DNA of 64,000 bases from Beroe forskalii (taxonomy: Eukaryota > Ctenophora > Nuda > Beroida > Beroidae): the NCBI GenBank assembly GCA_011033025.1, contig WFMF01000029.1, positions 558,001 to 622,000 on the forward strand, read 5' to 3'. Every line of letters starts with the position of its first letter. Within the stretch, counting starts at the first letter, position 1. Shown one piece after another: positions 35,755 to 58,089 of this stretch. The notes under the pieces are model-generated. The model worked only from the letters and a program-made list of their open reading frames with translations, did not search any database and had not been told where the DNA came from. Both the position numbers and the translations under genes were made by a program.

Positions 35755-36576
35755 ATGACTTGCCCTCATGTGAGTTGATTTTATATGTTGATGGGTCACT
35801 TAATTCGTTGATTCAGGATCCCAAACCTGTTCAAATCAAAGGAATTGCTAACGGAAAATGTTCTGCTGGAGTTTGGGTATTGTTGGCTCATTGAAGACAC
35901 AGGAGCCAACATTGGATAATAATGGGTCTCTAATTGAGTATTCATTATGACTAACACTATTAAAATTTTTATGTCCCGATGTACTTAATCTCAGTTAACC
36001 CCCCTGACCGCGGCTTTGTTAAAGGGGAAAGGGGGAGGGGGGTCCCAGACACAATCTATTGGGAACTACGGTATGACAACAAGCCGGTAGGTTTGACTCG
36101 GTCAGGCTTTAACACCTCGAATTTCAAAATCTTTTTTAAAAAAAAATTAAATTTGGGTAATTAAAAAAAACTTTTGATACGGGGAAAGGCGCGGCGCGTA
36201 AAATTTGTTGGGCGGGGGTTTGGAACCCTGGTTTCGCCCCGGAAGGCGGCGGTTTTCAACCCCCCCTGGTTAAGAGGAGACGTTTTCCCCTTTGGGTGCG
36301 CGGCGCTTCCCAGGAAACGCCGCGCGTCCCTTTGCGGAGGGAAGGAAGAAGCGATCAAAACGGCGCGCGAGCTGGGCTGGGGCAAAAAAGGGGTTTGGGT
36401 TTGCGCAAACCCGTTGTTCCCCTAAGTGTTACTTTTAACCCGGGCCCTGGTTACGAGGGGGGGGGCCCGGGCCCTTTTTGCCCTTGAACTATTTCCCGGC
36501 TCGGAAAAAGGGGGGCGTTTTAAGGGGGTTTAGTTTTTGAACCCCCGGTCAACCCGAAAGTTTAAGAAATTTTACA
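35755..36576. other. Probable low-quality assembled sequence next to gap
   Basis: First a corrupted repeat of 35270-35640, then a corrupted version of the GC-rich module (36180-36540) with inflated homopolymers (GGGGGG, CCCCCCC, TTTAAAAAAA). Accuracy falls towards the N run. Open frames here should not be trusted. Confidence 0.75.
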
Positions 36577-36676
36577 NNNNNNNNNNNNNNNNNNNNNNNN
36601 NNNNNNNNNNNNNNNNNNNNNNNNNNNNNNNNNNNNNNNNNNNNNNNNNNNNNNNNNNNNNNNNNNNNNNNNNNNN
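36577..36676. other. Assembly gap (100 N)
   Basis: Exactly 100 N, the usual placeholder for a gap of unknown size. The following ~100 bases (36677-36780) are homopolymer-rich and also doubtful. Confidence 0.99.
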
Positions 36677-36809
36677 TTTTATTTTTGGGGGTTTTGGGGA
36701 AAAAAAAAAACCCCCCAAATGGTTTCAATTTTTTTAAAAATTTTTTTTTAAAAAACCCAAATTTTTTTTAAAAATAACTATTTTTAAACATCATGAAATT
36801 AAAGTAAAA

Positions 36810-38940
36810 GCCTCATCTAATTCAACCATTTGGAACATTTAGGGGGTCCAAATAAACTCTATGACATTCCAACAACCAAACCTCTAAACTTACAGACAGT
36901 TCTCTAAACTCACACACAAACAATCTGAGACAGACAGAACACCTTGCACCAACAGGACATGAGCACTGGCTCAAGTTAGATCTGTCAAATACAGGGTTAT
37001 CTAATTAACATAAATCAAAGTCTGGGAATGGTGATTTAGTGCTAAGAAAGCTAGAATGCCACTGCTTAAATATGAGGTTGGATATCAAATAATCACACCC
37101 CCCCCCCCTATAATAATACAAAGTACAATCTTCAACCAATTCTTGTTCCTAAGCCCAAATGGGTGTGTGTACACGCCATGCAATGCAAAAAGGGATATAC
37201 ATGTTTAGCAACAATTCTTGACTAACTGTTTCGACTGGCAATGTGCATTATTCATTTATTTAATGTTTGTTTGACAAACTGGCTTTGGAGAGATCATTCT
37301 ATCCTGTACAATTTGCTATTCATAATTTTCAACTAACAGCAATTTTTAAATGAACTAACAATTTTGTAAAACACTCTGTGGGGTTCATGAATTGATTGAT
37401 TTCTAGTCTGATCAAGTAATTTTGAAATAAAAACTGAATAAAGAATTAGATAAAGAAGTTTTTAATTCAAATATGTTTTAACCCTGATTTTCAGGAGAAG
37501 CATCTCTCAAGATGGAGTATTGGATCAGGATGCATGCCACTTCTCATTAATTTATTAATGTGCAACGTAAAAGGACACAAATAACCCGGATCCATCCACC
37601 GGTCCTCTACTTCTCTTCACTAAGTGTGTTACTTAATTTCTTGATGCTTGGAGTACATACAAAGACCAAAGAGCAAGTTTCAGTTTAATTCAGGCTGGTG
37701 GTCACTGCACTTGACGGTGCTATACCCTGGTACCAGGGGGTGACTGCTGGGGGGCCTACCTCATAAAAAGCTCTCGCAATTTAAAACACCCCGAAAGCTG
37801 AGGTAGGTATTCGACTGAAGAAGCCTGCACACCACTCATCTTGGTGTGATTCATTTGGATCCTGCTGCTCTCTACATTGCATTACCTAAAGGGATCATGT
37901 TGGAGTTCAAGTACGGAGTTGGAGAAAAGTCTTGCAGATTGATGTATTGAAGAAAGTTTTCTTTTTAATTCAAATAAGAAGTTTGAAAATGAGATAAAAT
38001 AATGGATTTTGTTCTTAACGCACTGAATTAAAAATCAGTATATCTGCCTGACGCCTGTACATAAAATAGCGTTTATCCGAATGGAATGTATTCTCTTTCT
38101 TCTCCATGTCTCTATTTTATTTTTATATTTCTCTTTATTAAATTTTCTATTTATATCCATGTACGCATTGCATTATTATGATAATATTTCATAATTACTT
38201 CACCCAATCTTGCCTTCCTAAGCCCGTTTAGGTGTGAGTATTCGCCGCGCCCTCCTTTACGGGAAAAAAGCACCGCCCGCGAGTTCATCTAACCGGATGT
38301 TTACGCGCGCACACGGCCACACGGCCTTTTCGGCTCAATCCTGAGGTGGAACGACGTTGCGCGCGCGCGGAAAAGGGCGCTGGTGAGGGCAACGCGCGAG
38401 CCACATGTAGAAAAATGTCCTATTATTAGCTGCGCGCACGCGCCGCGCGCGGCTGTCGTTTCTCTTAAAATGTAGCCGTAGGTGTGGCTTAAGCTTTTTC
38501 TTAGCTCGCATAGGTGTGTGTGTGTGTGTGTGTGTACGCGCCGCGCGCTTCCCTACGGGACACGCGCTGGGAAAGCGCGCGGCGCCGCGAGCAACCCACA
38601 CAGCGATATACGTGTTTAGCATGTTTAGCAACTTAAGCTTGCGTACGCGCGCAGTGCCACAGCGCTATCCTGAGGAAGCGCGCGGCGCCGCTTAATGCGA
38701 ACAGGGGCCGTGGCCAGAAAGCGGGTATACGTGTTAATTAAGATTTTCCCGAAGATTAATATTCATACTTTATGCAATCTCAATTGCAATAATCTAGTAA
38801 ATAACGTTATTGTGATAATCATTGCTATACTACTGCAACTGGACTGAATTTAAGCTTTTAAAAAATTTGCAAATATACATAACTTGTACTCATCCCATCA
38901 CTGCTCATAATGATTTCCAAAGCAAAGGATATTTGCATCT
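36810..38940. repeat. Large inverted repeat, left arm, outer part (A)
   Basis: Reverse-complementary to about 56068-57830. For example ATTTAGGGGGTCCAAATAAA at about 36838 pairs with TTTATTTGGACCCCCTAAAT at about 57779, and CAAGTTAGATCTGTCAAATA at about 36971 pairs with a sequence near 57650. It includes a GC-rich module (38220-38720) whose counterpart is at 56350-56720. The left copy has an extra 514-bp insertion (37462-37975). No exon recognised. Confidence 0.9.
37462..37975. mobile_element. 514-bp insertion in left arm with 9-bp target duplication
   Basis: Flanked by AAGAAGTTT at 37453-37461 and 37976-37984, while the right arm (about 57117-57126) has one copy and no insert. The insert contains the dispersed repeat also found at 34985-35200, confirming it is mobile. 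A 9-bp duplication is usual for Mutator-like elements, but no clear terminal inverted repeats were seen. Confidence 0.65.
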
Positions 38941-38964
38941 TTTTGTGGTTTTGTTTGGTTTGAC

Positions 38965-41276
38965 ATGGCGAATCAAGTTACAAGGTTCAAAGAACTTCAT
39001 AATCCCCCAACGGAAGAAGAAGACAATGGGGAGGAAACTGATGAACCTGATAAGGTAGTGAGGGTTGTTTACTCTGATGGTGGAGATTGGACAGAAGTAA
39101 ATCATTCAAGAAAGAGGGACAGAAGTCAAAGAACCTACTCTAGAAAGAAGATCAACAGTGATGGAGCAACGTCTCAAACTTCAAGCCCTCAAGCTAAAGT
39201 GTGCAGAATTGATAATTCTTGTGTTTGTGGGAAACCAGTTGATGGTGCAGCAAAGATTGGGTGTTCTAAGTGTAACAGATGTTTTCATTTGAGCTGTGTC
39301 AACTTAGATGGCTTGCAACCAGAGCACATAAAACTTCTTAAGAATTGGTGGTGTTTTGGTTGCCTTCATTGGAAGCATACATCTGAAAATGACCCACAAT
39401 CTCACAAAGCTATAAGAAGAATTGTACGTGAAGAGCTTAAATCAGTGAAAGATGAGATTGTAACTGTTCGAGAAGACCTTGTATTTGCAACCACATCTGT
39501 GCAATCGGGTGTTAAAAATGATGTGAAGACATATGCTGAAGCTATCAGATGTAACCAGAAAGAGGTTTTAGAAGCAACAAGATCTACAACACTGGTTAAA
39601 GATGTTTGTAAGTCTTTGAGCATAGAAAAGCTTGAAAGAGAGAAAAAGCGTAAGAATGTTATTGTATCAAAAGTTCCTGAGGCACCTAGTTGTCTAGTTG
39701 GGGATCAGAGAACCAAGCATGATATTGACTACCCTGATCAATATCATTGAGAACGGATGACCATATGGGGATGACCAAAACGTCATGACTTAATTACTTA
39801 ATTAAAAATTTGCTGCTTGGTTTTCTTAATTTTCAATGACTAAATAGGACAGCAAAATCCCTATACAATTCTTTTATCGCGCTTTCGAAATACGTTGAAA
39901 ACATAGAAGCATTGCTCTCAGCTATTATAATGAAAGATAATATATAGGTAAGTACTAAGTACGAACAGTAGGCGGATAAGATTTACATCATTATAGCGTT
40001 CTAATGTATTGAATTAGTGACTGTAAAAGGTTAAACAGAACAGCTATCAATTTATTAAAGCTGCAGCAGATACTATTACGGATACAAAGCTCTGCTGGAT
40101 GACCAGAATGTGATTTCCAAACGCTATATATTTTCTACTTTGATCTATGTAAGTGATACTTTTTTTTTGGGGTTCTGGAGGTGAGATTTGCGATTCTCAC
40201 CTCCGTAGAGCCAGAAAATCATATATTAACGTTGGCAAGCCTAATTAGATTTGATCATAATGTATCTCTATGATTTTGGTCATCCTTGAGCTCTTGAGCA
40301 CAGAGGCATCATGATATCACATAATATACGCTCAGAATAAATAGGCAGTCGCAATGACGCCATCAACTTTGTGTGCACTGTCAAATTGTTGAAAATGACC
40401 GCTTATTTTTCGCGTGTGGGGTATAATTGAGAGATAATAAGATCTAACTTGGCTGGGACCGGATAGATACGCTGATATGGGGGAATTGGAATGTTCTCAA
40501 TTGTATAGTATGCGAATAAATTTATCAAGCACATGAACCACGAAAAACTTAACAGTGTTGTTTTGATACTAGCTCTTTTGTTCTAACATGTCGAAGTTCG
40601 CCCACAGGTAATTTATTACGGTAATCCGACGGAAGTTCGAACGACGGAAGTTCGAAACGACGGAAGTTCGAACTTTTCGAACTTCCGTCGTTCGAACTTC
40701 CGTCGTACAATCATTTATTACCTATGACCTATGCCCATGTCAGCCAACCTTGTAGAAACTAACATAATGAATGATTGTTGATTATAACATAATCTATTTG
40801 TCTACAATCTTCGATCAAAATTTCCTGAATACCATTGAGTTTTAAAGCTTAAAAATCAATATATATTTTTTACCGAAAAAAGTTCAAAAAATGGATGACC
40901 AAATTTCACTTCGGGGATGACCAATTTGATACGATGTTGATATGGGATTGACTATCTGTGCTGTGATAAAATTGGGATGGCCCGTAAGGACATTGTTACT
41001 TGCTACAGGGCAGGACAAGTCAAGAAAAATGAGGCAGATGAGATAATCCCTCGTCCACTTGTTGTTGTTCTTAAATCTGTTGACACAGCCACCTTTTGGC
41101 ATAATGGTGGAAAAGGCTACAGATGTGGCAATGACCACTGGGTGAATGAAGACCTATGTCGTGTAGATAGAGAGGCCAAGTTTTTTGTCAGGGAAGAGAG
41201 AAGAAAAAGACAGATGATGAGGGAAGAACAGATGAGGGAATTGAAACAGAAGGAATCAGCTCAACAGAGGAAATAA
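38965..41276 (+). CDS. LINE ORF1, PHD-finger protein, split by a transposon
   Basis: Coding segments are 38965-39731 and 40955-41276. Excluding the insertion 39732-40946 plus one copy of its target duplication leaves one frame of 363 codons including the stop. A PHD finger has Cys86, Cys88, Cys100, Cys103, His108, Cys111, Cys130 and Cys133 (C4HC3). A coiled-coil-like charged region follows (about 145-225), then KKRKNVIVSKVPEAP. After the break come IPRPLVVVLKS and a Lys/Arg/Glu-rich tail. In CR1-type LINEs this protein is thought to bind RNA and package the element. As it stands it stops at 39750, so the copy is inactivated in ORF1. Confidence 0.85.
39732..40946. mobile_element. 1215-bp non-autonomous DNA transposon inside LINE ORF1
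   Basis: The 8-bp target duplication ATTGACTA is at 39724-39731 and 40947-40954. Ends form imperfect inverted repeats: CCCTGATCAATATCAT and, on the other strand, CCCATATCAACATCGT (12 of 16 match), followed inward by GGGGATGACCA words at both ends. A perfect-looking palindrome built from CGACGGAAGTTCGAA is at 40630-40706. No transposase frame. The 8-bp duplication suggests hAT or a similar superfamily. Confidence 0.8.
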
Positions 41277-44200
41277 GAAAACAGCTTAGAGTCTTTTACA
41301 CCAATGCAAATGGTCTTTATAATAAGCTATCACAATTGCGCTTAATCATTGAAATGAATGCTATTGACATCATTTGTGTTACAGAATCCCACTTCAATGA
41401 CAACCTTGAATTGGCAGAAATATCTATCCCAGGGTTTAATGCTTATACTAGCAATCGGAATTTCAAACTTGATCAGACAACTTCTAAGAGTGAGGTTAGT
41501 GATGGTGGTGGGTCAGTCATCTATATCCATGAAAGCATACATGTAGTACAGGGAAGTCAAGACAGCAGTTTAGACTCAACTTCTATCACTATCAAAACAG
41601 ACATTGGAGATATAGAGTTGTGCTGTTTATATAGATCTGCTTCTCTTAATGAAAATCAAAATGAAGAATTTCTAAAGTATTTTTCAGCTAAGTTTTCTCT
41701 GCCCACTGATGATAACAAAGAAAAACTTATAGTTGGAGATTTTAATTGTCCTGATATCTCATGGTTATCAGGTAATGTTGCTGGGCCAGTAGACACTATC
41801 AACAAATCATTGCTTTTACAACAGAACTTACTGGAACATGTTCATAATTCTGGGTTTTCATGGCTTATAACTGATGAGGTGACACGCAGAAGGAAGTTTG
41901 GTAACACTATTCAAGAGAGTACACTTGACCAAGTTTTCTGTTCAGATAATTCTTTAGTGAGTGAGTTTAAAATAGGTCCACCATTAGGTAAAAGTGACCA
42001 CATGTCCTTCATAATTGACCTAAATTTATTTAGACCCAAACAAGAACATTGCTATGATATTGATGATGTTAAAAGGAGTTGGTCCAAAATAAGTACTGAT
42101 GAACTTCTTGGTAAATCATATGAAATTGATTGGAATTTTAGCAAAAATACTGAAGCCATGGAAGTGGAGGAAATGTGGGAAGAAATCCATGGCAAGTTGG
42201 CTTCAATTTCTGAGAATATCCCACCTGTTAAGCCTGATAAGCCTGATAAGATTGATAGTTACAACATGCCATGGATAAATTCCTCACTCCGCCGAGCTAT
42301 GAGAGCAAAAAATAAAGCATGGGATGAATTTGATAAAATTGGAAGTATGGAAAGGTTGGATGTAGCCTTGTATAAGCAGGGAAAGTTTGAAGATATTGAG
42401 ATTAAAGCTAAAATTCGTTATGAAAGGACTATCACTGCTGATTTGAAGCATAATTCAAAAGCTTTTTACTCTTATCTCCGTAATAGGCGTAAAGTTAAAT
42501 CAATGGTAACAACCTTGAGGAAGGATGAAAAGACTGGTTCCTTAACTTCAAATGATTATGAGACAGCAGAATGTTTCGCTGATGCTTTTTCGTCTGTGTT
42601 TGTTGAGGAGCCACTTGGACCACTTCCTCATGGTTGTTATAAGTCTACACCTGAACATGAACAAAATGATATCAATATAACTGAGAAAGAAGTGTTTGAT
42701 GAATTAAAAAGCTTAAATATTTATAAAAGTTTTGGCCCAGATAATATTCACCCCAAGTTGCTTTATTCCCTAGCTGATAATTCAAATTTTATTAAGTCTA
42801 TTACAGCTCTTTATGCAAAGTGTATTGAGAAGTGTCATATGCCTAATATCTGGAAAACAGCAAATGTTGTGGCACTCCATAAAAAAGACTCTAAACTTGA
42901 CCCTCTTAACTACAGACCTGTCTCCCTGACTTGTATTTTGTGTAAGATTTATGAGAAGTTTTTGAGAAAGCACATACTTAGTATTGTTGAGAAGAATATT
43001 TCTAATGGCCAGCATGGATTCATTGAAGGAAATCATGCCTTTCAAATCTACTTGAGACCTTTGATTCTATATTAGATTTATTGGATGCTGGTTACCCTAT
43101 TGACATTTTTTATCTGGATTTCCTTAAAGCTTTTGACTCAGTGCCTCACTATAGACTTCTAACTAAGCTTGAGGGTTATGGGATAAAAGGTCCAATGTTG
43201 GATATTTTAAGGGATTTTTTATCTGGTAGAACCATGAGAACTAGTGTCAGAGGGCGCTATTCAAAAAGCAGGGCTATTCTTAGTGGTGTTCCGCAGGGCT
43301 CAGTTTTGGGGCCCTTACTTTTTATCCTATTCATAAATGATCTACCAGATGAAATCAAGAATATGAGTATGTTATTTGCAGATGACTTAAAACTTATTGC
43401 TGATGCTAGAAATAAAGCACAGATAAATCAAGATCTTGAAAAGTTAGAACAGTGGGAAAACTTATGGCTTCTAAAGTTTAATACTGAGAAATGTAAAGTT
43501 ATGCATCTTGCTTATAATGATAATCCCCATAATCAGTATTTCTTAAATGGAGTGTTATTAAAAGAGGTAAACTTTGAGAAAGATTTAGGTTTATTTATGA
43601 GTGAAAATTTGGGCTGGGATGAGAACATTCGGTCTTGTATTAAATTAGCTAATAGATGCATAGGTTGGATTTCTAGGAATATGATCAATAGAGATCATAA
43701 GTTGTTGTCTAAAGTTTACAAAGCAATTATTCGTCCTAGACTTGAATACTGTGTCCAGCTGTGGAACCCGGTTGCTTGCCATGGGAACTGGTCAATAATC
43801 TTGGAGTTGGAATCAATTCAACGCCGTTTCACCCGTCTTGCCAATGATATTGGCCTTCTTCCCTATAGCAAGCGGCTGGAAATGATGGAACTTACCACTC
43901 TTGGAGAAAGACGTATCCGTGGGGACCTGATTGAAACATATAAGATTGTCACAGGAAAAGTAGATTATGCTAAGAATGTTTTCAAGTTGAATAGATCTGG
44001 TAGCAAGATTGTTAGTAAAGCCAATGTTAAAGTAGACAGTAAAATCTTAAAATTGAGACAATCTTTCCTCCCTGATAGAATTAAGAAGTATTGGAACAAC
44101 TTACCTTCTTTTGTCAAGTCATCAGAGAATGTAACATCTTTCAAAGTGAACCTAAATAAGTTTAAGACTGATTCTGCTAGCTTAGGAAATCATTTTTGGG

Positions 44201-44337
44201 AAGTATCTAGTATCATTATTGATAAAATTGAAGGGAATGCTAGTTACCTAATACGGAAAGAAAAGTTTAACAAATATCTTATGGAGAACCCCTTTGTTGC
44301 TAAGAAAGGATTCAACACTTTTTGTCACACTGGTTAA
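41207..44337 (+). pseudogene. LINE ORF2: endonuclease and reverse transcriptase, one frameshift
   Basis: The first frame stays open from about 41207 to 43075 and the second runs 43081-44337; a single-base indel near 43033 separates them. The endonuclease part holds ANGLYNKLSQLR, CVTESHF, GDFNCPDISW, LDQVFCSD and KSDH, the EEP (AP-endonuclease-like) motifs. The reverse transcriptase part holds YRPVSLTC, FYLDFLKAFDSVPH, SGVPQGSVLGPLLFILFIND and LFADD, all catalytic motifs present. Conserved endonuclease sequence begins before the first in-frame ATG (41354) and overlaps ORF1 in the -1 frame. Expression may therefore depend on frameshifting or re-initiation. Confidence 0.9.
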
Positions 44338-44702
44338 CTTTTTAACTTTTACCATCTGGTATTTCAGTTTTTATTCATCATTTAGTTTTCTGGTTCTTAA
44401 TTTATTCTAATATATTTTGTGTATATATCGATAAATCTTGACTATTATAATATTTCATTTCTAACTCACTTTTGTCAGGGCACTATAGCATAGTGCAACT
44501 TAATGTTTTATTTTTTAATTGAATATTGAGAGTACCTTGTAGAGGTACATGACGTGAAGAAGGATGATGAAGAATGAGAATGATATAGTTGTGTTGTATT
44601 TATTACAAAACTGTTTATCTTATCTTATCTTATCTACTATACTGTTATGTTTTTGATTAATGATAGTTGAATTTTTCTTAACATTCTTGTTGAATGGTCA
44701 AT

Positions 44703-45890
44703 TTTTGTGCCAATGGCTTGGTATGGTATATTTCCTAACCCCCTTTTTGTTGATATTCATTAATATTATCAAATCTTTATATCCTATTCATAGCTGCTAT
44801 AATCTATAATGAATGAGTTTAATTAAATGTTGTTGCAATGTTGCCAAATAAGCCTCATAATGGATAAAATCCGTGATCAATATACATATCTCAATCTATA
44901 CAATTATGGCTGTTTTTGTATTCCAAATATAATAAATATCTCAATCTGTTATTGAAGAGACTTCGTCTTCGAAAAAGTTGTCCTAAGACTTGAAATATCA
45001 TTGATTATTTTTATTGAGATCATTGGCAATTTCTAGATGATTGATCATGTCATCAAGGCTCCTGTTACTCAACATTTCAACAATTATTATTGCTGTATCA
45101 GGTTTCTTCCTCAATCATTCTCTGATAAATTAGCACCCAACATTATATAATAATGAAAAGTAATATCTTGATTTGCTCTTATAAGCTTGATTAATTTGAT
45201 AAGCTAAATGCTCTTCAGCCTCTGTTGTGAACCATCCCATTCATTACATGTATGATGAGTAGGTTAGTAGGTAGGTATGTTAAGTAATTATTCCCAAGCA
45301 GCAAACCCCGAATGTTCATTATTTTAACTTTTTTGCTTTTCAGTGGGGCAGCACCTAAGTACCACTCCAGTTATGGAAGAGATTGTACTGCTCAGGGAAG
45401 GAGTTAGTGTTGAAATGGAAGTTAAACTTTTATACAGTCAAACAGTCACTGTATCACAGAGTGATATTCACTGGACTAAGGTATAGATACTGGACAAATG
45501 GAGGTAACTTGATATGGGACTTGATAGGGAAGATTGAATTTTCGGATACATACTATAGTTCTTATATATCAACAAATGTATCATTAGGTATATGATGTTC
45601 AGAAAAGATTTTCAAGACATACGAGTATTCCATAACAAAAATGTCCTAGGTCAATGGATATCTTCCAGAGAAAAGCTCTCTAAACTTGAACAACAAGCTG
45701 GCCACACTCATGATAAGCAGGTTATACTTATTCCTATAACAATCCTATGATACCATTGACAAGGGTGGGAAAATCTACAAAATCCTCATTAGTTCTCAAT
45801 ATCTTAAGCATGAAGCTATTAAAGGATACGGGCAGTTGAAAAGGTCATAGGGAATATAAATGATATCCATGAAATAAAAATTTCAGGGTA
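44703..45890. repeat. Large inverted repeat, left arm, inner part (B)
   Basis: Reverse-complementary to about 52785-54345. The match includes two Ig-gene exons (45344-45480 and 45671-45720) with their intron and ends immediately before the acceptor of the exon at 45887. Confidence 0.92.
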
Positions 45891-48800
45891 CAGACTGGTG
45901 ATTCAGGAAATTATAGAGTGCATGTGAGAGGAATTCGCAATGATGGTGGATACCTGGACAGAGAAACTACCATCACCCTCACTGTTCTGAGTAAATGTTT
46001 TGTAATATCTAAGATATAACTTTCTCTTAAGATATCAGATATTGAGTTTCATTGCCTTTCTCTGAATCACTGAAGCTCATGAATATGAAAACGTTTCCTG
46101 CAGGCAGTCCAAAACTGTTACCAATTATGGCAGTTGTCAATGTGCTATGCTGTGGACGTCCTGTTACACTCTCAACAGAACCTAATGGTATGTCCTCTAA
46201 CTCCTTATTCAGATTTTCATTGGTGCCTTGATTTCTACCCTGCAGAATATCTCCTACATTAGAGATAAATATCTCCAAAATAAGACTATCAGAGACAATT
46301 TTGATTGGTTTTTGGATAACAGGTTCCATCCCTTCCCAGGTTACATTCGTCCAGGAAGTGTTTCTTGGAGACAGTCTGACAAAGTTTGGAACCAAACCAG
46401 GTATTGGGCCATGATCTGTAAAATGAAAAGCTTTACTTTTATTGATTACACCATGATAGCCATGGCAATAGTACCACAGTTCCCATGGTAACTGTATCCT
46501 TTAACCGACAGGTACCAGCTCAGTCCAGACAGTACTTCCCTCACCCTACCACACTCCTCTGTGTCTGACAGTGGAAGGTACGAAGTGACAGTGGCAGATG
46601 GTCGGAATGCTTCCACCACCACTTCAATACTTCTTCATATTTACCGTGGGTAGCTGTTGTTGAACTGCTGTTTGAAATTTGAAAAAGTTATATTGCGAGT
46701 TTTTGTATGATTTTGACAATGATTCATTCGACTTCTTTCAAGGTAAACTTATTCAAAATTATCTTTGAGCTCTATTTCACAGTTCTACATGTGACCACAT
46801 TCCTCTTCTTTTTAGGTTTGCCACACATATCTGGAGACAGAGTTGTAGAGGGGCTTGTTGGGCAACCGATTCACATCAAACTCAACATCACTGCCAGCCC
46901 ACCGTAAGTATTGGTAGAATTCAGGATTATATCAAGTAAAAATAGATAATTCTTTGCTTGGAATCGTCAAGCAACGATTTGTTTGCAAGTAAAAAGGTTT
47001 GATATTTCAAACCAATTCATTCCCAGGATTTGTATGCAAGTAAAAAGATTTGATATTTCAAACAAATTCATTCCCAGGATCCAGGATATAAAGTGGTTTA
47101 AAGATAGCAAACCACACACCAAGAATTTAGTGGCCGACAAAACGTCTCTTAACATAGACAAGGTGGGGACTTTTGACTTTAATTTTTTCCAAATAGTTTC
47201 ACCCGGTATTCTATTGTGATATGATTTTGATTTTTTAAGATATCTCATGATTCAAGCTGTGATTTCCCAGGCTGGTTTATCAGATACGGGAGAGTACGTT
47301 GTTTTCGTCACTAACTTGGCAGGATGTTCTACTCACACTACCACCCTTACTGTACTAGGTTAGTATTGTAACGATTCGGGAACTTTTTCAGACTTCAGCA
47401 TTTATTCAAACCAAAGTAGGTGCCTGACAAAAATTTATTAAGTACTTAAGAATGTAAATTTCCTTTTGAAAGTAAGCTTCGAAAGAAATTCTTTCAGATT
47501 TACTTCTTCCTTTGATAGTATGATAACTTCACTTCTAACTTCACTTTTATAATGTCTTTCAGAGCCTCCCTCCGTCTCTCTGTCCCCCTCCATTGGATCT
47601 GTGTTACATGGTGACAGTGTCATGTTGACCTGTCTGGTATCTCCTGGAGCAACTCTCATCTGGACCTCATATCAAGTGGTTAGAATCATATCTCTTAGCT
47701 GGAATTATCTGATCCTTGGGGTTTTGAGATCACAACATATTATTGTTGCAGTTTTAACCCAACCAAATTTATTGCTGAAGCTTCTCGGAAAACATAGGTA
47801 TGCTGTTTCACATCATCATTCATCAATCTACCAAAGGCTGTCACGAAGCGCTACTAGAAACAAGCTCAATCCATGCGCTATTTGAAATGAAATTAACTCA
47901 ATATTTTCCCAGGTTTTACCTAACTCAGTGCTTGTTCCGGGTGTGCAGATAAAAGGAAGCAATCCTTCCTACCTCAGCATTCCTTATGTCAGGGATACTC
48001 ACCAGGTCAGTAAGCACCCGGGGTCCAGGTTTTTACAGGTTTTTTTTTAGAAAAGTAGAAAGTTTGAACCGTTCAATTTTGACCCTGGAAGAGAGATAAG
48101 TTCGAAAAATTTATCGATAAATATGAGTTGGATTACTCGATTTTTTTCGTGTACTATGAACTCATCTCCTTAATTTGTTTTGCCTTGTATTTGGCTCATT
48201 CTCTGTGTTTCAGCGTGAGTACACGTGTACTGCACAGATCAGAGTGAGTGGTAAAGTGATGACATCGTCAAGGAGTGTGGACATCCAAGTCTTGGGTAAG
48301 AGTTCCTGAATGTGGATCATTTGACATTTGTCAGTATAAATTATTGACTAAGATCATTGAAAGAAATATCTTTAAGCGCTGTTTTGACAGTCACTGTTGT
48401 TATAGCAACAAGGTTACTATAACAACAAGGTTGCTATAGCAACACTCATACCTCCCCTCTCAGTTGCCCCCACCCTATCCAACAACACCTCCCTGCTTCA
48501 AACCGTGTACCCTGGCTCCAGTGTAACACTCAGTGTAACAGCATCCTCAACTTTCCTTGTTAATGACATCACCTGGAAACGAGATGGTGAGTTGGGGGCC
48601 TGACACTAGCAAAAAGGGGTGATATTATCCAGGCCCGTAGACAGAGGGGGGGCTAGGGGGGCTGCAGCCCCCCTCGGAAGAAAAGGTACCATTTCAAAAA
48701 AAATAGTTAGAATAAAAGTTTTTTGACTGATAATCATAATTATATACTTTGGCTTGGTTAAATATAAATAGTGGCAGTTTAATCTTATTCTGACTGTTAT

Positions 48801-51800
48801 AGCTCACTTATAGTTGATTGTATACTTTTTCAATGCTTTGATTTTGACAAATATCGTCCTGTACATTTCCTGTACATTTCTTTATTGTAAAAATCATCCT
48901 ACAGCACCCTAATTTCCTAAAATTTTTCCGGGGCTCCGCCCCTGGACCCCGCTGGGGGCTGTGCCCCCAGACCCCTGCCGCAGCTTGGCTTCGCTCGCAG
49001 CGCAAGGGCCCCTCCCGGAAAAAAATCCTGGCTACGGGCCTGATATTATCAGGGGTTAGAGTGAGGAAATCATTATAAGGGGTTTAGGATGGTAAATTGA
49101 TGACGCCATCATCAGGGTTTAGAATGATGAATTGCTGACTTGAAAATTTAAACCACATCATTCATTGAAACATGTATAAGAGTATAAGCTTGGAATGCCA
49201 GTTGCTGTGATATTTGACGGCGTACGCAAGTGACACGTATTTGTCAAACACTCGGAGAAAAGTGACGCTTTTATTTGTCCTCTTTTTTCTAGAAATTCAT
49301 CAAGCAGCATTCCAAAATTCAAGTAGAACTGATACATGTAACCACTTTTTCGTTGTTGCGTAACGCCATTTAAATGTATAAAAGCTCGAAATGTCAGCTG
49401 TGATTTTGTACGTAAGTATTCGTCCCCTGCTTTTGTGGTTCACACCAATTTCATCATTGAATGCTTCAACTTGTGTCGAGTGCTCGACTATCCAACCAAT
49501 ATGGAAGTACAATATTGGAATTTGGAATATTCATGTGAAGGTATTAGGCTTGTAAAGTAAGCAGTTACATGTCGAAGTGGTGATTGTCTAACGCAACTTA
49601 TTAATATTAGACAGTCATTTAGCTATTTAAGTCATTATTAAAGTTATAATTCCCTGCAATTGTCGGGGATTGACATCTGGCCACACAAACTATTCCTAAG
49701 AACTTAAGAACAGACTGCAACTCAAAATATAACTATAATTTCTTGGAGGAGAAGGAAAGTAGGAGGAACAGGGGTGGAAAGGAAAAAAGGGAAAAAAGAA
49801 AGGAAGTGAACTGGAAAGGGAAGGGAATGGAAGGGAAAAGAGAAGAGATAAGTAAGGAAATGAAAGATATGATAAAAGTTTTCGAATGGAAGGGAAAAGA
49901 TAAGTGATTTGTGAGGGAGTGAAGATATGATAAAAGTTTTTGCTAGAGTTTATATCTGTATTTCATTAAACTTTATCACCGCTTAAACCTCTACGTGCTA
50001 GGAATGTATGTGAGAGCCTATAATCAATCTATAATATTAAATCTCCTTTTATGGCATAATCACCGGCTGCTTGAGCAACGCTTTGCGGGCCTTGAATCAT
50101 GGGCGGTTTAACGTCAGTAACACACCATTTTAAACTATGATAATGACGTCACTCTGAACATGCCTGTTTGGAGTGTTCTGTTTCCATTAGCTGCTACTCC
50201 TGGATTCCTCCAACTTCACTCAATCATCGAAACAGAAGGGATTAATTCTGTTCGATATTATATAGTTCAAAGTACCGTGATTTAACTGAAATGAAAGAAC
50301 CCTAAATTCTAAGCCATACCTATCATAATGCAGAAGAAAAATCTAGCCATTCAATCAGCAAAATCCAAATCTTAGTTTGAATTAACGGACACCAGTCATT
50401 TCAATGAGAATGATGAGAATCATGGGCGTTTTAATGTCAGAAACACACCATTCTAAACTATGATAATGACGTCACTCTAAACATTTCTGTTGGTTGTGTG
50501 CTGTTTCCATTAGCTGCTACTCCTGGATTCCTCCAACCTCACACAATCATCGAAACAGAAGGGATTAATTTTGTTCAATATTATATAGTTCAAAGTACCG
50601 TGATTTAACTGAAATGAAAGAACCCATACCTATCATAATGCAAGAGTAAGAACTAGAAATACAACCAGCAATATCCAAATCAAAGTTTGAATTAACGGAC
50701 ACCGGTCATTTCAATAAGAATGATTACTATTTGATGTGACATACTAAACCCGTGCCTTTACCCAGCCTCAGGTCAGTCCAGGATACAGTCCGGAGCCAAG
50801 TACCTCATATTCAACCAGGGGAGGAGCCTGGTGATCAACAACGTACACTCGGTAAACATCCTCTAGAATTATAGGGATAAATAAAAACTAATTTTAGAAA
50901 ATATAATTGGTGCTTTCATGTCACTAACTTGTCAGCCCATGAAATTTCTTATCCTAGTTTTCGGTCATACGAGCGAATTACTGCGGTAGTCCTACGGCGG
51001 GAGTTCAAATCATTTCCAAATAAACTCCGAATATCTCAATCTTAATTATATCTATTTTCACAGTGGGATCGAGGTCTGTACAGTGTGGAGGCAAGCAATC
51101 AAAACGGAACCTCCAATAAACTCTACTTCTCTGTGACACTGAGTGATGTGTACACTCAACCTACTGTCATGAGATTAGTGGCTCCTGATGCTGTACTCGT
51201 GGGTGGCAAGGTAATAGCAGTGCTCATAGCAACACTCTTAGACATAGCAACACACTTAGCAACACTCTTAGACATAGCAACACCCATAGCAACACACATA
51301 GCAACACACTTAGCAACACGCATAGCAACACACATAGCAACACATAGCAACCTACGGTCATGAGACTAGTAGCTCCTGATGCTGTACTGGTGGGAGGCAA
51401 GGTAACAGCAACACACAAAGCAACACTCTAATAGTCACAGCAACACACACATACTCACATAGCAACGCTCTTTAAGTCGTAGCAACTAGTAACATGTACA
51501 TAGTCGTAGCAACATAACGCAACAAATAGGATGCACGTTGCTAATCTGGTTCGCAACTTACATAAGTTTACACTCCCCAGATAACATTGGAATGCTATGT
51601 GGAGAGCAATCCACCACCTCAAATAACATGGCACCTCTCCGGCCGTGTCATAGCCAGTGGGTTAGTGGAATAGAAGTTTGAAGTATTAAAGGATGATCCC
51701 TTTTTTGCTCTTTCGTTATATTAAATCTGAATTCATGCGTTTATGATTTATCCATTTCATATATTTTCAAGCACCTTAATTTTCAAGCCCATTATGCTAT

Positions 51801-52329
51801 TATGATTCTAGAACCCCTTCATTCCCCTCACTGCTCTCACTCCCCCTATAATTACTCCCTCTGCAGTTGGCAGCACGTCATAGACTCAGCCCAGCCATCA
51901 GACACAGGAGGTTATGTGTGTGAAGCAAGGAATATCAGAGGGTCTCACAAGTACACCAAATACCTCAGGGTCATAGGTCTGTTGCGGAGTTGGGGGTACT
52001 GTCCAGTTTGTCTAGAATTTTTGTGCACAAATTCGTGGGTTGAAGTTGGTACATTCCATTGTTAACCATCCGAAAAGCAGTACGATGTCGTTTGTCAAAT
52101 CATGTCTTTCGAAGAATGTCCAAAATCTGTCACACAACTGTCAGCTAAACATGGCCAGCGGTCTGTAGACCATAGCCCAGAATCCTGTGGATATACTACT
52201 AAATCTTTCCCCCCAGCTGTTCCCATTGTAACGCCGGTAGTAAGTCCAGTGTACGGTGTTGCTGGCAGTAGTGTGATGCTGCAAGTCCATGTTCAGATAG
52301 ATAGTTACACGCCAACCTCTGACACTAAG
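45344..52329 (+). CDS. Immunoglobulin-superfamily protein, 17 exons, both ends missing
   Basis: Exons with consistent phases: 45344-45480, 45671-45720, 45887-45990, 46104-46187, 46340-46400, 46512-46645, 46816-46903, 47078-47162, 47271-47358, 47563-47678, 47913-48005, 48214-48295, 48464-48586, 50766-50851, 51064-51210, 51581-51660, 51867-51976. A further exon, 52217-52329, starts another domain. Each Ig domain is spread over two or three exons, with the C-strand Trp (DIHWTK, SVSWRQ, DIKWFK, LIWTS, DITWKR, QITWHL) and the F-strand DxGxY (DSGNYRV, DSGRYEV, DTGEYVV, REYTC, RGLYSV, DTGGYVC). Canonical Cys pairs occur only in domains 4 (VMLTC/EYTC) and 6 (ITLEC/GYVC). No signal peptide or membrane span is visible. 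Probably extracellular recognition or adhesion. Confidence 0.85.
46977..47077 (+). repeat. ~54-bp tandem duplication of a splice-acceptor region
   Basis: GATTTGTRTGCAAGTAAAAA...TTCATTCCCAG occurs twice in tandem just before the exon at 47078, so two identical acceptors TTCATTCCCAG lie about 51 bases apart. Use of the upstream one would add about 50 bases and shift the frame. Confidence 0.85.
48397..48444 (+). promoter_or_regulatory. Three phased X-box-like 14-mers
   Basis: GTTGTTATAGCAAC (48397-48410), GTTACTATAACAAC (48414-48427) and GTTGCTATAGCAAC (48431-48444) are spaced exactly 17 bases apart, separated by AAG. They resemble the palindromic RFX X-box (GTTGCCATGGCAAC). The position is intronic, 20 bases before an acceptor, so they may equally be a small tandem repeat. 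Confidence 0.4.
48630..49042. mobile_element. hAT-like MITE, 413 bp, with perfect 8-bp target duplication
   Basis: Ends CAGGCCCGTAGACAG and, on the other strand, CAGGCCCGTAGCCAG (14 of 15 match). Flanked by ATATTATC at 48622-48629 and 49043-49050. CAGG termini and an 8-bp duplication are diagnostic of hAT. The interior is GC-rich at both ends with an AT-rich centre and no transposase. Sits in an Ig-gene intron. Confidence 0.92.
49051..50090 (+). other. Large Ig-gene intron, no exon seen
   Basis: Includes a purine-rich GGAAAGGGAAGGGAA-type patch (49740-49925). No additional Ig exon supported. Confidence 0.5.
50095..50735 (+). repeat. ~320-bp tandem duplication in Ig-gene intron
   Basis: The block beginning ATCATGGGCGGTTTAACGTCAG at about 50095 is repeated from about 50420 (ATCATGGGCGTTTTAATGTCAG) with some 90% identity through AATTAACGGACACCRGTCATTT. 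Both copies contain TGACGTCA-like (AATGACGTCACTC) sites. Confidence 0.9.
51211..51480 (+). repeat. CATAGCAACAC minisatellite and a partial exon duplication
   Basis: Irregular repeats of CATAGCAACACACTTAGCAA-type words. Embedded at 51351-51401 is a second copy of the 3' end of the preceding exon (CCTACGGTCATGAGACTAGT...GGAGGCAAG) with its own GTAACA donor but no acceptor. Confidence 0.85.
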
Positions 52330-52784
52330 GTAATATTGTTGTTGTAATTAATATTGTGGCAAATTCGTCCGAAATAGTTGGAAATATTACGTTATACTGG
52401 AACGCGCGAATTGATTTTAATACAGCAAGCAACAAATCGTAGTTAGATTTCAGCCGCGCGCACCAAATTTTACGCGCACTATTGGCGGGACATAAAAGGA
52501 AGCACGTTTTCTTCGACGAGTGATAACCTGCTCCTTCTACTTCTACCACGCGTTCCTTGACTAGCCGGTCTTAGTTCTATCACGCCTTCCTTGGCCATCC
52601 TCTCCTACTCTGCAACTTACACCGTTCTGATGCCTTATTGGTCCAGCTTGGATCTCAGATCTGCGCGCGCGGTCCAATCCCAGATCTGATGGATATATCT
52701 GGGATGGGAACGCGCGCGCAGATGTTTCAGAATTAATTTAATTTGTGATCGCGCGCGCCGATTTAGATGTTATCCAGTTCGCGG
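52330..52784. other. Sequence between last + exon and inverted arm B'
   Basis: Intronic or flanking; contains a hairpin-capable pair around 52650-52735 (CAGATCTGCGCGCGCGG and inverted GCGCGCGCAGATG). No exon recognised. Confidence 0.5.
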
Positions 52785-54345
52785 CTTCCAGAAATGAATT
52801 CCTTTTTTGATTTCATGGATATCATTTATATTCCATATAAAATTTTCAACTGCCCATCCTTTAATAGTTTCATGCCTAAGATATTGAGAACTAAAGAGGA
52901 TTTTGCAGATTTTCCCACCCTTGTGAATGGTATCATAAGTTCTGTTAGCAATAACCTGCTTATCATGAGTGTGGCTAGTTTGTTGTTCAAGTTCAGAGAG
53001 CTCTTCTCAGGAAGATATCCATTGGCCTAAGATATTTTTGTTATGAATACTGGTATGTTTCGAAAATCTTTTCTGAACATCATATGCCTAATGATACATT
53101 TGTTAATATATAAGAAATATAGTATGTATCCGAAAATTCAATCTTCACAGTCAAGTCCCATTTCACAGATTTTGGGATATCAAGTTACCTCCATTTGTCC
53201 AGCACCTATACCTTAATCCAGTGAATATCACTCTGTGATACAGTGACTGTTTGACTGAATGAAAGTTGAACTTCAATTTCAACACTGACTCCTTCCCTGA
53301 GCAGTACAATCTCTTCCATAACTGGATTGGTACTTAGGTGCTGCCCCACTGAAAAGCAAGAAAGTTAGAATAATGAGCATTCAGGAGTTTGCTGTTTGGG
53401 AATGATTATTTAAAATTCTTACCAACTCATCTTTTTTGTGATCCTTCATGATATCAAGTGAATGAGATGAATGAAACTCAATGATGATAATGAAAGGAAT
53501 GAATCAAACAATTTCACACAACCACGCAAATCGACTGACAGTTTCGGAATTTAAAATTCCATCTTCAGGATCTCCGTGTGAATGTTAATCATCCTCAGTT
53601 AGTTAATTTAATATGTGTTGTGTTGTAAGTTTTAAAACTCATCATACTTGTAATGAATGTAAAATTTCACAACAGAGGCTGAAGAGCATTTAGCTTATCA
53701 GATTAATCAAGCTTATACCAGCAAATCAAGATATAACTTTTCATTATTATGTTGGGTGCTAATATATCAGAGAATGCTTGAGTAAGAAACCTGATGCAGC
53801 AATAATAATTGTTGAAATGTTGAGTAGCAGGAGCCTTGATGACATGATCAATCATCTAGAAATTGCCAATGATGTTAATAAAAATAATCAATGATATTTC
53901 TTAGCGCAACTTTTTCCAAGTCTCTTCAATAACAGATTGAGATATTTATCATCTTTGGAATACAAAAACAGCCATAATTGTATAGATTGTGATATGTATA
54001 TTGATCACAGGCCATTAGATTTTATCCATTATGGGGCTTATTTGGCAACAACATCTAATTAAACTCATTCATCTAGTGGGCAAAATAAGAATAGTACCAT
54101 GTTATAGATTATAGCAGCTACAAATAGGATATAAAGATTTGATAATCAGTAAAACAAGAAAATTCAGTAAAACAAGAAAATTAATATTCGTGCCAATCTT
54201 TACAGGACAATTAAATATATAACATAGCACGAAATATAGGCTAGTATGCCTGCACCATCTCAAAGAGCTGTGAACAATGATAATATTAACTAATATCAAC
54301 AAAAAAGGGGGTTAGGAAATATACCATACCATGCCATTGGCACAA
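52785..54345. repeat. Large inverted repeat, right arm, inner part (B')
   Basis: Reverse complement of 44703-45890 plus a few hundred extra bases of small insertions. Similarity is roughly 90%. The inner boundary lies at the point corresponding to the acceptor of the 45887 exon. Confidence 0.92.
52956..53348 (-). pseudogene. Duplicated Ig-gene exon pair (partial gene)
   Basis: Minus-strand exons 53348-53212 (LREGVSVEIEVQLSFSQTVT...DIHWIK) and 53005-52956 (KSSLNLNNKLATLMIS) are copies of 45344-45480 and 45671-45720 with intact frames and junctions. The following exon is missing because the duplication ends, so this is at best half an Ig domain. The acceptor of the second exon changed from CCAGAG to CCTGAG. 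Confidence 0.85.
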
Positions 54346-54349
54346 AAAT

Positions 54350-55994
54350 CAGTAAAAATCTCCGAAGAGAGTAAAATATTATATAGCTCGAGGAAGCACC
54401 AAACATTCATAATGAATGGTGTATCGCAATAACAATAAATAAATAACAATAAATTAATATCTGATAACAATAAATTAATCTGATATGAATAGAAAAATAG
54501 GTGCAAAGGTTTCAGGAAGGACAATGAATATGAAAAAGGGTAAGGAATGTTTGCAGTTTTAGAAACCCTATTGAAGTGTGAATAAATATAAATCTGAAAT
54601 ATTAGAACACTCCAAGTGTGAATCCAATATTTAAAAAAAAAGACTAACCCCCTTGCCTAAGTCAATGTCAAAAAGTAAATGCAAACATCCAAAAATATAT
54701 AGAAATGTTTTAACTTTTTATATGGATCAGATAACTCAATAACAATCATAATATGAAAAAGACTCAATTGAAAACTCTCAACAACAAATTATGAGGGTTA
54801 TAAGGGGCAAACTTCCACATTCAAAACTAGTAATCAGTTTTAGGTATGAGATTTAAATCAAGTGTGTCCATTTCAGATGTTTTTCCACTGGGCTTGCCTC
54901 TATAGCCCCTGAGTGAAATGACACATGTCTTGAGAAGGTCAAATCTGAGACGTCTCCTCACAAAGCGACAGTGTCACTGTATGATTGTCCAGTCTTATTG
55001 CTCAGTTTCACTGCCAAATGCTTTAAAAACTAGCAGCTTCATTACCTATGCCACCAGTTGTACTGAAGACGGAGTGAAAGTGGCTTTTTTTCAACCTTGC
55101 AGTACCCTGTCATTGTACTTTTGATTTCTCATTCCTCATGTCTCAACATCTGGAAGAGGCTTGTGTTTTGCATTGATTGATTGAGCTTGTGCAATAATTT
55201 ATATCAGTAAATGCTCTGTCCAGCCAAGCCCAGAAACCTCTGTGCATACGTCCAGTCGAGCCCCACACTTACATCAGTACCCCCTTGAAGCTGTTCAGTG
55301 GTTATAGGTATCAGGCTTGGTTCGATTACTGTGTCTTGCATACCTGTTCAAGCAATTTTGCTATGGTACCTTTCAGTGAGTCATGTCTCAGGAAACATAG
55401 CCACCAAGTTTGCAGGTGAGACAGTGGTTGATTGTACTAGGTTCACCACACACACATAAACGTGGCATGTTCAGGAGCTCAGAGTCAAGTTGTATCTCAA
55501 ACTGATAGCATCATGGAATTCTTGTTTTATTCAATAAAAGCCATATTCTTTCAAGGGTAGTGATGTTAGCCATGATGAGGCCCCTTTCTCTGAGAGTAGT
55601 TCTAGCTGCCGCTGTACAAGAGGACTGATCTCTTCTCCAAATCATTCTTATATTGATCATAGAAGGTCTGCCTGTTCTTCTTGACTTGAGTGATAACTTT
55701 GTTTTGTTTGGACTCATCGACTTGGAATGAGCTCTCTTGGTTGTATATGGCATTTGTTAGATCTTCCATTGCTAGAATAGAATTTCCATATTCCAACTCT
55801 GCTGTTTGACAAATGTTTGCAATGCTGAGACCACCCATTCTGGCAGGCAGGGCAAATATCTTTCTTAACTGCTCAGATACATGCAGTTTTCCAAGGATAA
55901 CTGGAATGAATACATCCTTAATGTGGTATTCTAGTCTATTCAAAAGTTCTGACACTCCTGGTGTGGTTCTTGCTAAAAAATTCCACCTTTTTGA
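54350..55994 (-). pseudogene. Inserted retroelement fragment (reverse-transcriptase family), decayed
   Basis: Flanked by a 12-bp duplication TGGCACAAAAAT (54338-54349 and 55995-56006); the left arm has a single copy and no insert. The minus strand reads WNFLARTTPGVSELLNRLEY, FALPARMGGLSIANICQTAE, EKGASSWLTSLPLKEYGFY then an in-frame stop, and KQEFHDAISLRYNL. Further on come KYNDRVLQ and KATFTP fragments near 55050. It is the same family as 32715-34625 and 25104-25304. Frameshifts and stops mean it is dead. It is 5'-truncated, with the RT core missing. Confidence 0.75.
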
Positions 55995-56006
55995 TGGCAC
56001 AAAAAT

Positions 56007-57890
56007 TGATCATTCAACAAGAATGAAGAAAAATTCAACAACTATCATTAACATAACAGTATAGTAGATGCCAATGATGCCAATATCCTTTGCTTTGGAA
56101 ATTATTACGAGCAGTGCTGAGTGCAAGTTATGTATATTTGCAAATTTTTCAGTTATAGTCCAGTAGCAGTAGTAAAGCAATGATCATCACAATAACGTTA
56201 TTGAATAGATTTTTGCAATTTTGTCAGACGATGTCTGACCCGCTGACGCGACGCAAGCCGGAAGGGTCTATCAACGATAAACAATTGCAATTGAGAGTAT
56301 CGTATATAAAATATAAATATTAATCCTCGGAAAACTCTTACTTAGCACGTATACCCGGTCTCTGACCCCCTGTTCGCAGTGCGCGGCGCGCTTCCTCAAG
56401 GTAGCGCTGCGGCCCTGCGCGCGTACGCAAGCCTTATAAGCCCTGCATCATACGGCTAAATTCTTAAAATAAAACAACGGCCGCTCGCAGCTCATAACAG
56501 GGCGCGCGCCGGTTGGGGCAATTTTTCACATGTGGCATGGCTTGCGCGTTGCCTTACCGGCGCCCTATTCTGCGAGCGCGCGGCGCGCCGTCGTTTCACC
56601 TCAGGATTGAGCCAAAAGGGCCGCGCGCGCGTAAATATTCGGTTAGATGAACTCGCGCGCGGCGCGCTTCTGCCGTAAAGGAGCGCGCGGCGCGTACACA
56701 CACCTATACAGGCTGAGGAAGGCAAGATTGGGCGAATTAATGATAAAATATTATCATAAGAATGCAATGCGTACATAGTTATAAATAGACAATTTTCCTA
56801 GTGGAAGCTATTGTTTTGATATAATGGAAGGAAGCGTGATGGTTTAGTACCATAATTTATTCTATTTCTATTTCTATTTCTATTACTAAAGAGAAATATA
56901 AAAATAAAATAATATGTATGTGTTTCAATTTTCATTTAGAGACATGGAGATTGGAGAAAAAAGAGAATACATTCCATTCGGATAAACGCTATTTTATGTT
57001 GAACAGGTGTCAGGCAGATATACTGATTTATGATTTAGTGTGCTAAGAACAAAATCCTTTATTTTTATTTTATTTTCAAAGATGACTATATTTGTTCTAC
57101 AAAGAAGATTTTCAAACTTCTTTATCTAATTCTTTATTCAGTTTTTATTTTGAAATTTCTTGATCAGACTAGAAATCAATCAATTCATGAACCCCACAGA
57201 GTGTTTTACAAATTTCTTAGTTCATTTAAAAATTGCTGCTAGTTGAAAACTATGAATAGCAAATTGTACAGGATGATATGATCTCTCCAAAGCCAGTTTG
57301 TCAAACAAACATTAAATTTAACTCTATGATAATGCACATTGTCAGTCGAAACAGTTAGCCTAGAATTGTTGCTAAACATGTATATCCCTGTTTGCATTGT
57401 GTGGTGCATACACACACCCATGTGAGCTTAGGAACAAGAATTGGCTGGAGATTGGAGGTGGCTATTCAACTCCTGGGTTTAGCAAACATGTCTATAACAG
57501 TACTTTGTATTATTATTGGGGGGGGGGGGGCGTGATTATTTGATATCCAACCTCATATTTAAGCAGTGGCATTCTAGCTTTCTTAGCACTGTGTTGTAAA
57601 GCATCATTCCCAGACTTTGATTTGTGTTAATTAGATAATCCTGTATGTGACAGATCTAACTTGAGCCAGTGCTCATGTCCTGTTGGTGCAAGGTGTTCTG
57701 TCTGTCTCAGATTATTTGTATGTGAGTTTAGAGAACTGTCTGTAAGTTTAGAGGTTTGGTTGTTGTAATGCCATAGAGTTTATTTGGACCCCCTAAATGT
57801 TCCAAATGGTTGAATTAGATGAGCCTTCTTATTTTGAAGTTGTCATTATGTATAAAGATAGTTATTTGTAAATAAATCTTATTTTACATG
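56007..57890. repeat. Large inverted repeat, right arm, outer part (A')
   Basis: Reverse complement of 36810-38940 (with the LINE junction at about 56068). It includes the GC-rich module at 56220-56720 with GTCAGACGATGTCTGAC, and an extra (TATTTC)n stretch at 56860-56885 not present on the left. It ends about 200 bases before the Ig-family start codon at 58090, so it contains that gene's 5' flank. Confidence 0.9.
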
Positions 57891-58089
57891 ACCATAGTTA
57901 ATTTAGTAAATTTAATTCAAAAGAAGATGGCACACCTAATTGTAAAAAGATTCAGTTGTTTAAAGACAAAGTTTTTAATCTTCATTTTCAGGAGGAGAGT
58001 TCAAAAACATTGAATTCATTTACTCAATATTTTTAACCTCCTTAAAAAGTAGAACATAATAAAAGTTAGAACATTTGAGGTTCTCAGAC

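What the first reader, a model, noticed from the sequence alone, without database searches (positions are those of the whole stretch)
36810..57890. Large palindrome around an Ig-receptor gene with reciprocal empty sites for two retroelements
Arms 36810-45890 and 52785-57890 are reverse complements. Relative to each other, the left arm alone holds a full-length LINE (38941-44635) and a 514-bp element. The right arm alone holds a different retroelement (54350-55994) flanked by a 12-bp duplication. Each arm therefore preserves the other's pre-insertion site. This gives relative dating (duplication first, insertions later) and exact element boundaries. Inverted duplication of receptor exons resembles rearranging recognition-gene clusters.
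Basis: seen in the sequence. Interest (0 to 1): 0.85.

Follow-up and report, generated by a model that had tools for sequence, protein, structure and literature searches.

The report
Inverted copy cuts immunoglobulin-like receptor gene
An animal genome carries an old inverted partial copy of the start of an immunoglobulin-like receptor gene, sitting where the rest of that gene should be, with jumping elements later landing in one copy or the other; this is a clear but ordinary rearrangement, although one of the jumping elements moves in an unusual way.

Summary
The inverted arms are real: left 36763-45880, right 52805-57876, 90.0% identical over 2722 aligned columns. Each arm keeps the empty site of the other's insertions: a 514-bp element and a CR1-like LINE on the left, a 5'-truncated LINE with a 12-bp duplication on the right. 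Each insert has a relative elsewhere (for the left LINE only partial ones) closer than the arms are to each other, so duplication first, insertion later holds.

New here: the spacer is the 5' part of one Ig-domain gene (18 exons, open frame). A paralogue on contig C257 follows it to base 52798, the arm's edge, then continues into Ig exons not found on this contig. The inverted copy thus marks a breakpoint beyond which the gene's 3' part is missing. A rearranging recognition cluster is not supported: the first Ig domain occurs only here, and RSS-like sites are at chance. The left arm's outer end is hidden by a 100-N gap in poor sequence.

The most unusual item is the 514-bp element, a high-copy retroposon that also occurs as head-to-tail multimers, without a recognised ribozyme.

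The parts
36763..45880 (+). left arm of the inverted duplication, holding 5' flank and the first two recognised Ig exons plus two later insertions; outer end hidden by a gap
   Evidence: blastn blocks, global alignment
36577..36676 (.). 100-N assembly gap just outside the left arm; surrounding sequence rich in homopolymer runs
37462..37975 (+). 514-bp retroposon monomer, left arm only; AAGAAGTTT on both sides; member of a high-copy family that also occurs as tandem multimers
38939..44634 (+). CR1-like LINE (PHD finger ORF1, endonuclease, reverse transcriptase; frames broken), left arm only, ends in TTATC repeats; edges approximate
   Evidence: Pfam, empty site in right arm at 56069-56073, ORFs
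45344..52329 (+). 5' part of an Ig-domain gene: 18 exons, all AG/GT, one open frame of 600 aa; first exon(s) upstream not identified, exons downstream not found here
52663..52719 (.). GC-rich hairpin in the intron next to the inner junction
   Evidence: a similar stretch in the paralogue
52798..52805 (.). inner breakpoint: the C257 paralogue matches up to 52798, the right arm starts at 52805
52805..57876 (-). right arm, inverted copy with Ig exons 1 and 2 only
52956..53348 (-). inverted copies of Ig exons 1 and 2, splice sites kept; the copied stretch ends 6 bp before exon 3
54350..55994 (-). 5'-truncated LINE copy, right arm only, 12-bp target duplication ATTTTTGTGCCA

Best explanation
This is an old, one-off inverted partial duplication in an animal genome. 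A stretch from the 5' flank through exon 2 of a multi-Ig-domain gene was copied in reverse orientation into the intron after exon 18 of the same gene, and the gene's 3' exons were lost from this locus. Shown: the arms, the empty sites, the breakpoint against the C257 paralogue, and that no match to the 3' exons was reported on this contig. Inferred: the mechanism, most likely replication template switching to the opposite strand beside a GC-rich intron hairpin; whether the 3' exons went with the copying or later; and that the truncated gene is now non-functional or makes a shortened protein. After the arms formed, ordinary retrotransposition added a 514-bp retroposon and a LINE to the left arm and a truncated LINE to the right arm.
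For: Arms 90.0% identical over 2722 columns. Gene frame open through 18 of 18 canonical exons up to 52329. The C257 paralogue aligns over 52178-52798 and then goes on with further Ig exons, while C347 switches to the inverted arm. Of 11 matches to those downstream exons, 9 lie on C257, 2 weak ones (28% and 39%) on other contigs and none on C347. The right arm has exons 1 and 2 only. One N run in 184 kb, outside the arms. Nearest relatives of the inserts: 99% for the 514-bp element, 95% for the right LINE, 99-100% over partial copies for the left LINE. The right arm's outer part with its flank (57500-58560) matches only itself and the left arm.
Against: No reads were available. The left arm's outer junction is hidden by the gap, so one junction that a template-switch model needs cannot be read. 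Divergence along the arms is uneven even at non-CpG sites (5.6% to 17%, chi-square p = 2e-8), which one event with a uniform clock does not explain. The C257 paralogue itself shows no match to exons 1-3 and 5-10 (exon 4 was in neither query), so the history has at least one more rearrangement. Long relatives of the left LINE are only 82-84% alike, so its young age rests on partial copies and the empty site. The junction microhomology (TGAA) is short and ambiguous.
Confidence: 0.7

Rival explanations
1. Two paralogues lay side by side first. An inversion then joined exon 18 of copy A to the inverted start of copy B, so the right arm is the 5' end of a once separate gene, perhaps the missing 5' end of the C257 copy.
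For: Arm divergence (273 of 2722) is near that between C347 and C257 in four stretches (186 of 1589), Fisher p = 0.09. C257 shows no match to exons 1-3 and 5-10, and the right arm has only exons 1-2.
Against: The four stretches are a choice: another C257 match, 49611-50414 at 76.7%, was left out and would raise that divergence. Exons 3 and 5-10 of a second copy gave no match in the assembly. The inverted 3' exons of copy A, which the model expects downstream, are not found. I lowered this rival from 0.20 to 0.17 for the stretch left out.
Confidence: 0.17
2. Assembly artefact: two haplotypes joined head to head.
For: A gap with poor sequence lies 86 bp from the left arm's end.
Against: Arms and spacer are one gap-free stretch. 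Divergence is 10%. The spacer DNA that was searched (46800-48620) has no second near-identical copy. The flank beyond the right arm is unique. A haplotype join would not be expected to switch just where an independent paralogue goes on as a gene.
Confidence: 0.06
3. The arms are the terminal inverted repeats of a large mobile element carrying an Ig gene.
For: Long inverted arms around a gene.
Against: The two arm pieces searched (52804-53427 and 57500-58560) match only this locus in 216 Mb. The arms contain gene exons and introns. No target duplication can be read at the outer ends because of the gap.
Confidence: 0.01
4. A working rearranging recognition locus, in which inversion swaps receptor exons.
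For: Ig exons in inverted copies with kept splice sites; NG86 dN 0.045 and dS 0.149 over 204 bases, too few sites to decide.
Against: No cluster seen for the first Ig domain. RSS-like sites at chance level. The inverted copy ends before exon 3, so it encodes less than one Ig domain. Arms not kept alike.
Confidence: 0.02

Closest known systems
Inverted (duplicative) segmental duplications formed by template switching or paralogue rearrangement (recalled)
   Same: two inverted arms, unique spacer, gene broken at an arm edge
   Different: one outer junction hidden by a gap; mechanism not shown
Large sex-chromosome-type palindromes kept alike by gene conversion (recalled)
   Same: inverted arms around a spacer
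   Different: here 90% alike, with one-sided insertions
Rearranging or expanding recognition-gene clusters (recalled)
   Same: Ig-domain exons
   Different: no cluster found, no recombination signals above chance, part of one Ig domain in the inverted copy
CR1/Jockey-superfamily LINEs (name recalled; PMC4120745 seen in a search listing only)
   Same: PHD finger in ORF1, endonuclease, RT, TTATC tail, no clear target duplication
   Different: reading frames broken in this copy
Metazoan non-LTR retrozymes (PMC7229834, passages read), for the 514-bp element
   Same: small high-copy repeat in head-to-tail multimers, target duplications longer than 4 bp
   Different: no hammerhead found; unit 502 bp, above the 150-450 bp quoted there; defined monomers with a terminal repeat of 12-15 nt are common here

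Membership tests
Inverted duplication | two inverted, homologous arms in one contiguous stretch | tested here: met
Inverted duplication | outer and inner junctions readable against an unrearranged relative | tested here: inconclusive
   inner junction yes; left outer end hidden by the gap
Gene-converting palindrome | arms kept nearly identical | tested here: not met
   90.0% identity, uneven along the arms
Rearranging recognition locus | multiple related gene segments in a cluster | tested here: not met
   5 of 5 matches to the first Ig domain are the exons of this locus and its inverted copy
Rearranging recognition locus | recombination signal sequences at segment ends | tested here: not met
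   1 site at score 12 or more against 0-4 in 12 shuffles, 0 at 13 or more; consensus recalled
Rearranging recognition locus | somatic or individual variation in arrangement | not testable with these tools
   no reads, one assembly
CR1/Jockey-superfamily LINE (38939-44634) | PHD-type ORF1, APE-type endonuclease, RT | tested here: met
   PF00628, PF03372, PF00078
5'-truncated LINE copy (54350-55994) | target duplication and longer relatives that continue upstream into RT | tested here: met
   12-bp duplication; L050 continues upstream in a 662-aa frame with RVT_1 at E = 8.5e-7, 29.3 bits, just under the 29.6-bit cut-off
Metazoan non-LTR retrozyme (514-bp element) | type I hammerhead ribozyme in each unit | tested here: not met
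   no hammerhead match in Rfam up to E = 5 in window 30000-64000 and three loci; core motif without a GAAA at usable spacing by eye
Metazoan non-LTR retrozyme (514-bp element) | head-to-tail multimers with target duplications | tested here: met
   shared flank of 9 bp or more in 11 of 23 arrays or monomers against 4 of 506 mismatched pairs
Metazoan non-LTR retrozyme (514-bp element) | expressed as circular RNA | not testable with these tools
   no RNA data

The most novel reading that the evidence does not exclude
The 514-bp element belongs to a retroposon family whose template RNA carries a repeat of about 15 nt at both ends. The reverse transcriptase would jump from the 5' end of one RNA to the 3' end of the next through this repeat, as in retroviral strand transfer but during target-primed integration, so that head-to-tail multimers of period 502 are built in a single insertion, without a hammerhead ribozyme or a circular RNA. 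This would be a route from dispersed retroposon to satellite array.
Probability: 0.3. Interest if true: 0.55.

Novelty: new member of a known kind. Interest (0 to 1): 0.3.

Why it matters
The locus is a clean worked example: three insertions in two arms plus a paralogue give an ordered history and a breakpoint placed to a few bases. It warns that an Ig gene annotated here would be a 3'-truncated gene beside an inverted fragment of itself, not a receptor cluster. The small retroposon could make it testable how tandem satellite-like arrays arise in one retrotransposition step.

Tried and rejected
Gene continuation downstream: an Ig motif scan of both strands over 184 kb gave 9 hits, 5 of them exons of this gene and 4 that by eye are not Ig. 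tblastn of nine C257 downstream stretches against those 184 kb gave best E 0.045, not in order. The whole-assembly search put them on C257, with two weak hits elsewhere. Rfam on 30000-64000 gave 4 matches, none at gathering score; on L019, L020 and L025 it gave 25, none at gathering score. The hammerhead idea for the 514-bp element failed, as did a tRNA origin (0 genes in 3 loci, run with the bacterial code). The single-unit RNA fold is not unusually stable (z = -0.08). An LTR-pair reading of the 510-bp direct repeat at 14324 and 16495 had no matching flanks. The species was not identified; an innexin-like exon 58 kb right of the window speaks against a sponge (recalled distribution). Literature searches were made; apart from passages of PMC7229834, only search listings were seen.

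Full report
What is there. The window is C347:558001-622000 of an unnamed 216-Mb genome in 1134 contigs. Self-comparison shows two inverted arms: 36763-45880 on the left and 52805-57876 on the right. With the three one-sided insertions left out, 2449 of 2722 aligned columns agree (90.0%, K2P 0.108), with 15 further gaps of 8-204 columns. A 624-base piece of the right arm matches only the two arms in the assembly, and 57500-58560 matches only itself and the left arm's outer part.

Limits of the observation. A 100-N gap lies at 36577-36676. The sequence on both sides is rich in homopolymer runs: mean run length 2.1-2.5 in 4 of 5 windows from 36100 to 36849 and 1.76 in the fifth, against a median of 1.42 and a 99th percentile of 1.76 over 410 windows. 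The left arm's outer end, 86 bp from the gap, is therefore not a reliable boundary. No other N occurs in 184 kb, so arms and spacer are one gap-free stretch.

Insertions. In the left arm, 37462-37975 (514 bp) is flanked by AAGAAGTTT on both sides, and the right arm has this 9-mer once at the matching site. The LINE at about 38939-44634 is missing from the right arm at 56069-56073; its edges are ambiguous by a few bases and no clear target duplication was seen. In the right arm, 54350-55994 is flanked by ATTTTTGTGCCA on both sides, and the left arm has this 12-mer once. Pfam gives PHD, endonuclease and RT domains for the left LINE, whose frames are broken. For the right element, relatives such as L050 continue upstream into a 662-aa frame with a weak RT match, E = 8.5e-7 at 29.3 bits, just under the cut-off. 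Its nearest relative among 40 scored candidates is 95% identical. The left LINE's 3' part has relatives of 99-100% over partial copies and of 82-84% over long ones. The 514-bp element has a 99% relative. Each insert thus has some relative closer than the arms are to each other, as expected if the insertions came after the duplication; for the left LINE this rests on partial copies.

The gene. Between and partly inside the arms lies an Ig-domain gene on the plus strand. Eighteen exons from 45344 to 52329, all with AG and GT at the borders, give one open frame of 600 residues; the other two frames hold 35 and 29 stops. Exon borders were read by eye, without RNA. Pfam finds Ig_3 (E = 1.2e-50) and I-set domains in a hand-typed version that differs by a few residues at exon joins. 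The right arm has exons 1 and 2 in inverted form with kept splice sites and ends 6 bp before the place of exon 3. Between the two copies of these exons 13 of 204 bases differ (NG86 dN 0.045, dS 0.149), too few to judge constraint.

The breakpoint. A protein search found 23 matches to exons 5-18: 15 on C347 and 8 on contig C257, collinear with exons 11-18. C257 follows the window over 52178-52798 at 87-89% identity and then continues with further Ig exons. In the window the sequence instead switches at 52798-52805 to the inverted arm. A search with those downstream exons gave 11 matches: 9 on C257, 2 weak ones on other contigs (28% and 39%) and none on C347. An Ig motif scan of the 66 kb to the right shows no further Ig exon on the plus strand. 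So the gene at this locus ends at the inverted arm, as far as these searches see. C257 in turn shows no match to exons 1-3 and 5-10 (exon 4 was in neither query), so the full history holds at least one more event.

Dating. Arms differ at 273 of 2722 sites; C347 and C257 at 186 of 1589 in four chosen stretches, Fisher p = 0.09. A further C257 match, 49611-50414 at 76.7%, was left out of that count; it overlaps a local tandem repeat and would raise the C257 divergence. Arm divergence is uneven even at non-CpG sites: 5.6% in 44632-45260, 7.1% in the outer block, 9.0% at the gene end, 11% and 13% in two small blocks and 17% in the GC-rich block 38140-38790 (chi-square p = 2e-8). Partial gene conversion or a fast-changing GC-rich repeat could cause this; it stays unexplained.

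How it arose. I favour a replication template switch to the opposite strand, beside the GC-rich hairpin at 52663-52719, with loss of the 3' exons then or later. This step is inference. A rearrangement between neighbouring paralogues is the main rival. Rearranging receptor clusters are not supported: all 5 matches to the first Ig domain lie here and RSS-like sites are at chance level.

The 514-bp element. Its family gave 1513 first-look candidates, of which 40 were scored and yielded 104 matches. Copies occur as monomers or as head-to-tail multimers of period about 502, in which neighbouring units share 12-15 nt. In the 30 fetched loci, which are the best matches and so not a random sample, 23 different arrays or monomers had both ends in view. 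Eleven of 23 have a shared flank of 9 bp or more, against 4 of 506 mismatched flank pairs; 12 of 23 do not. Seventeen of 23 end at element positions 516-519; the six others (in L027, L028, L029, L030, L032 and one in L034) end elsewhere. Seven of 23 start at position 1 or 2, five of these being single units; 16 start further in (17 to 481). Of the 16 made of more than one piece, 14 start further in. Variable target duplications, a common 3' end and 5' truncation point to LINE-type integration of a multimeric or serially copied template. Not all copies fit: one place in L034 holds two pieces in opposite orientation. No hammerhead was found, which sets the family apart from published metazoan retrozymes (PMC7229834, passages read). 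Whether such a family is in print was not established; searched for similar descriptions and only their listings were seen.

Noticed in passing
37462-37975; also a partial copy at 34993-35186: High-copy retroposon family with tandem multimers of period about 502, terminal repeat of 12-15 nt, 5' truncation and target duplications, no recognised ribozyme.
   Followed up: partly
38140-38790 and 56284-56795: GC-rich CGCG-laden block, the most diverged part of the arms (17% at non-CpG sites).
   Followed up: partly
14324-14832 and 16495-17004: Direct repeat of about 510 bp, 99.8% identical, spaced by 1.7 kb; flanks do not match.
   Followed up: partly
7873-9930: GC-rich minisatellite of about 19-21 bp units with long open frames.
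   Followed up: no
295-1761 and 3864-5515: Tandem repeats of 335-bp and 141-bp units.
   Followed up: no
25938-26412 and 27978-28350: Two 17-bp-unit arrays that are inverted copies of each other.
   Followed up: no
58562-59382: Another LINE-like reverse transcriptase fragment just right of the right arm (named by eye from the frames, not searched).
   Followed up: no
L018:8034-8660 (C347:680034-680660): Innexin-like exon (PF00876, E = 1.7e-21).
   Followed up: no
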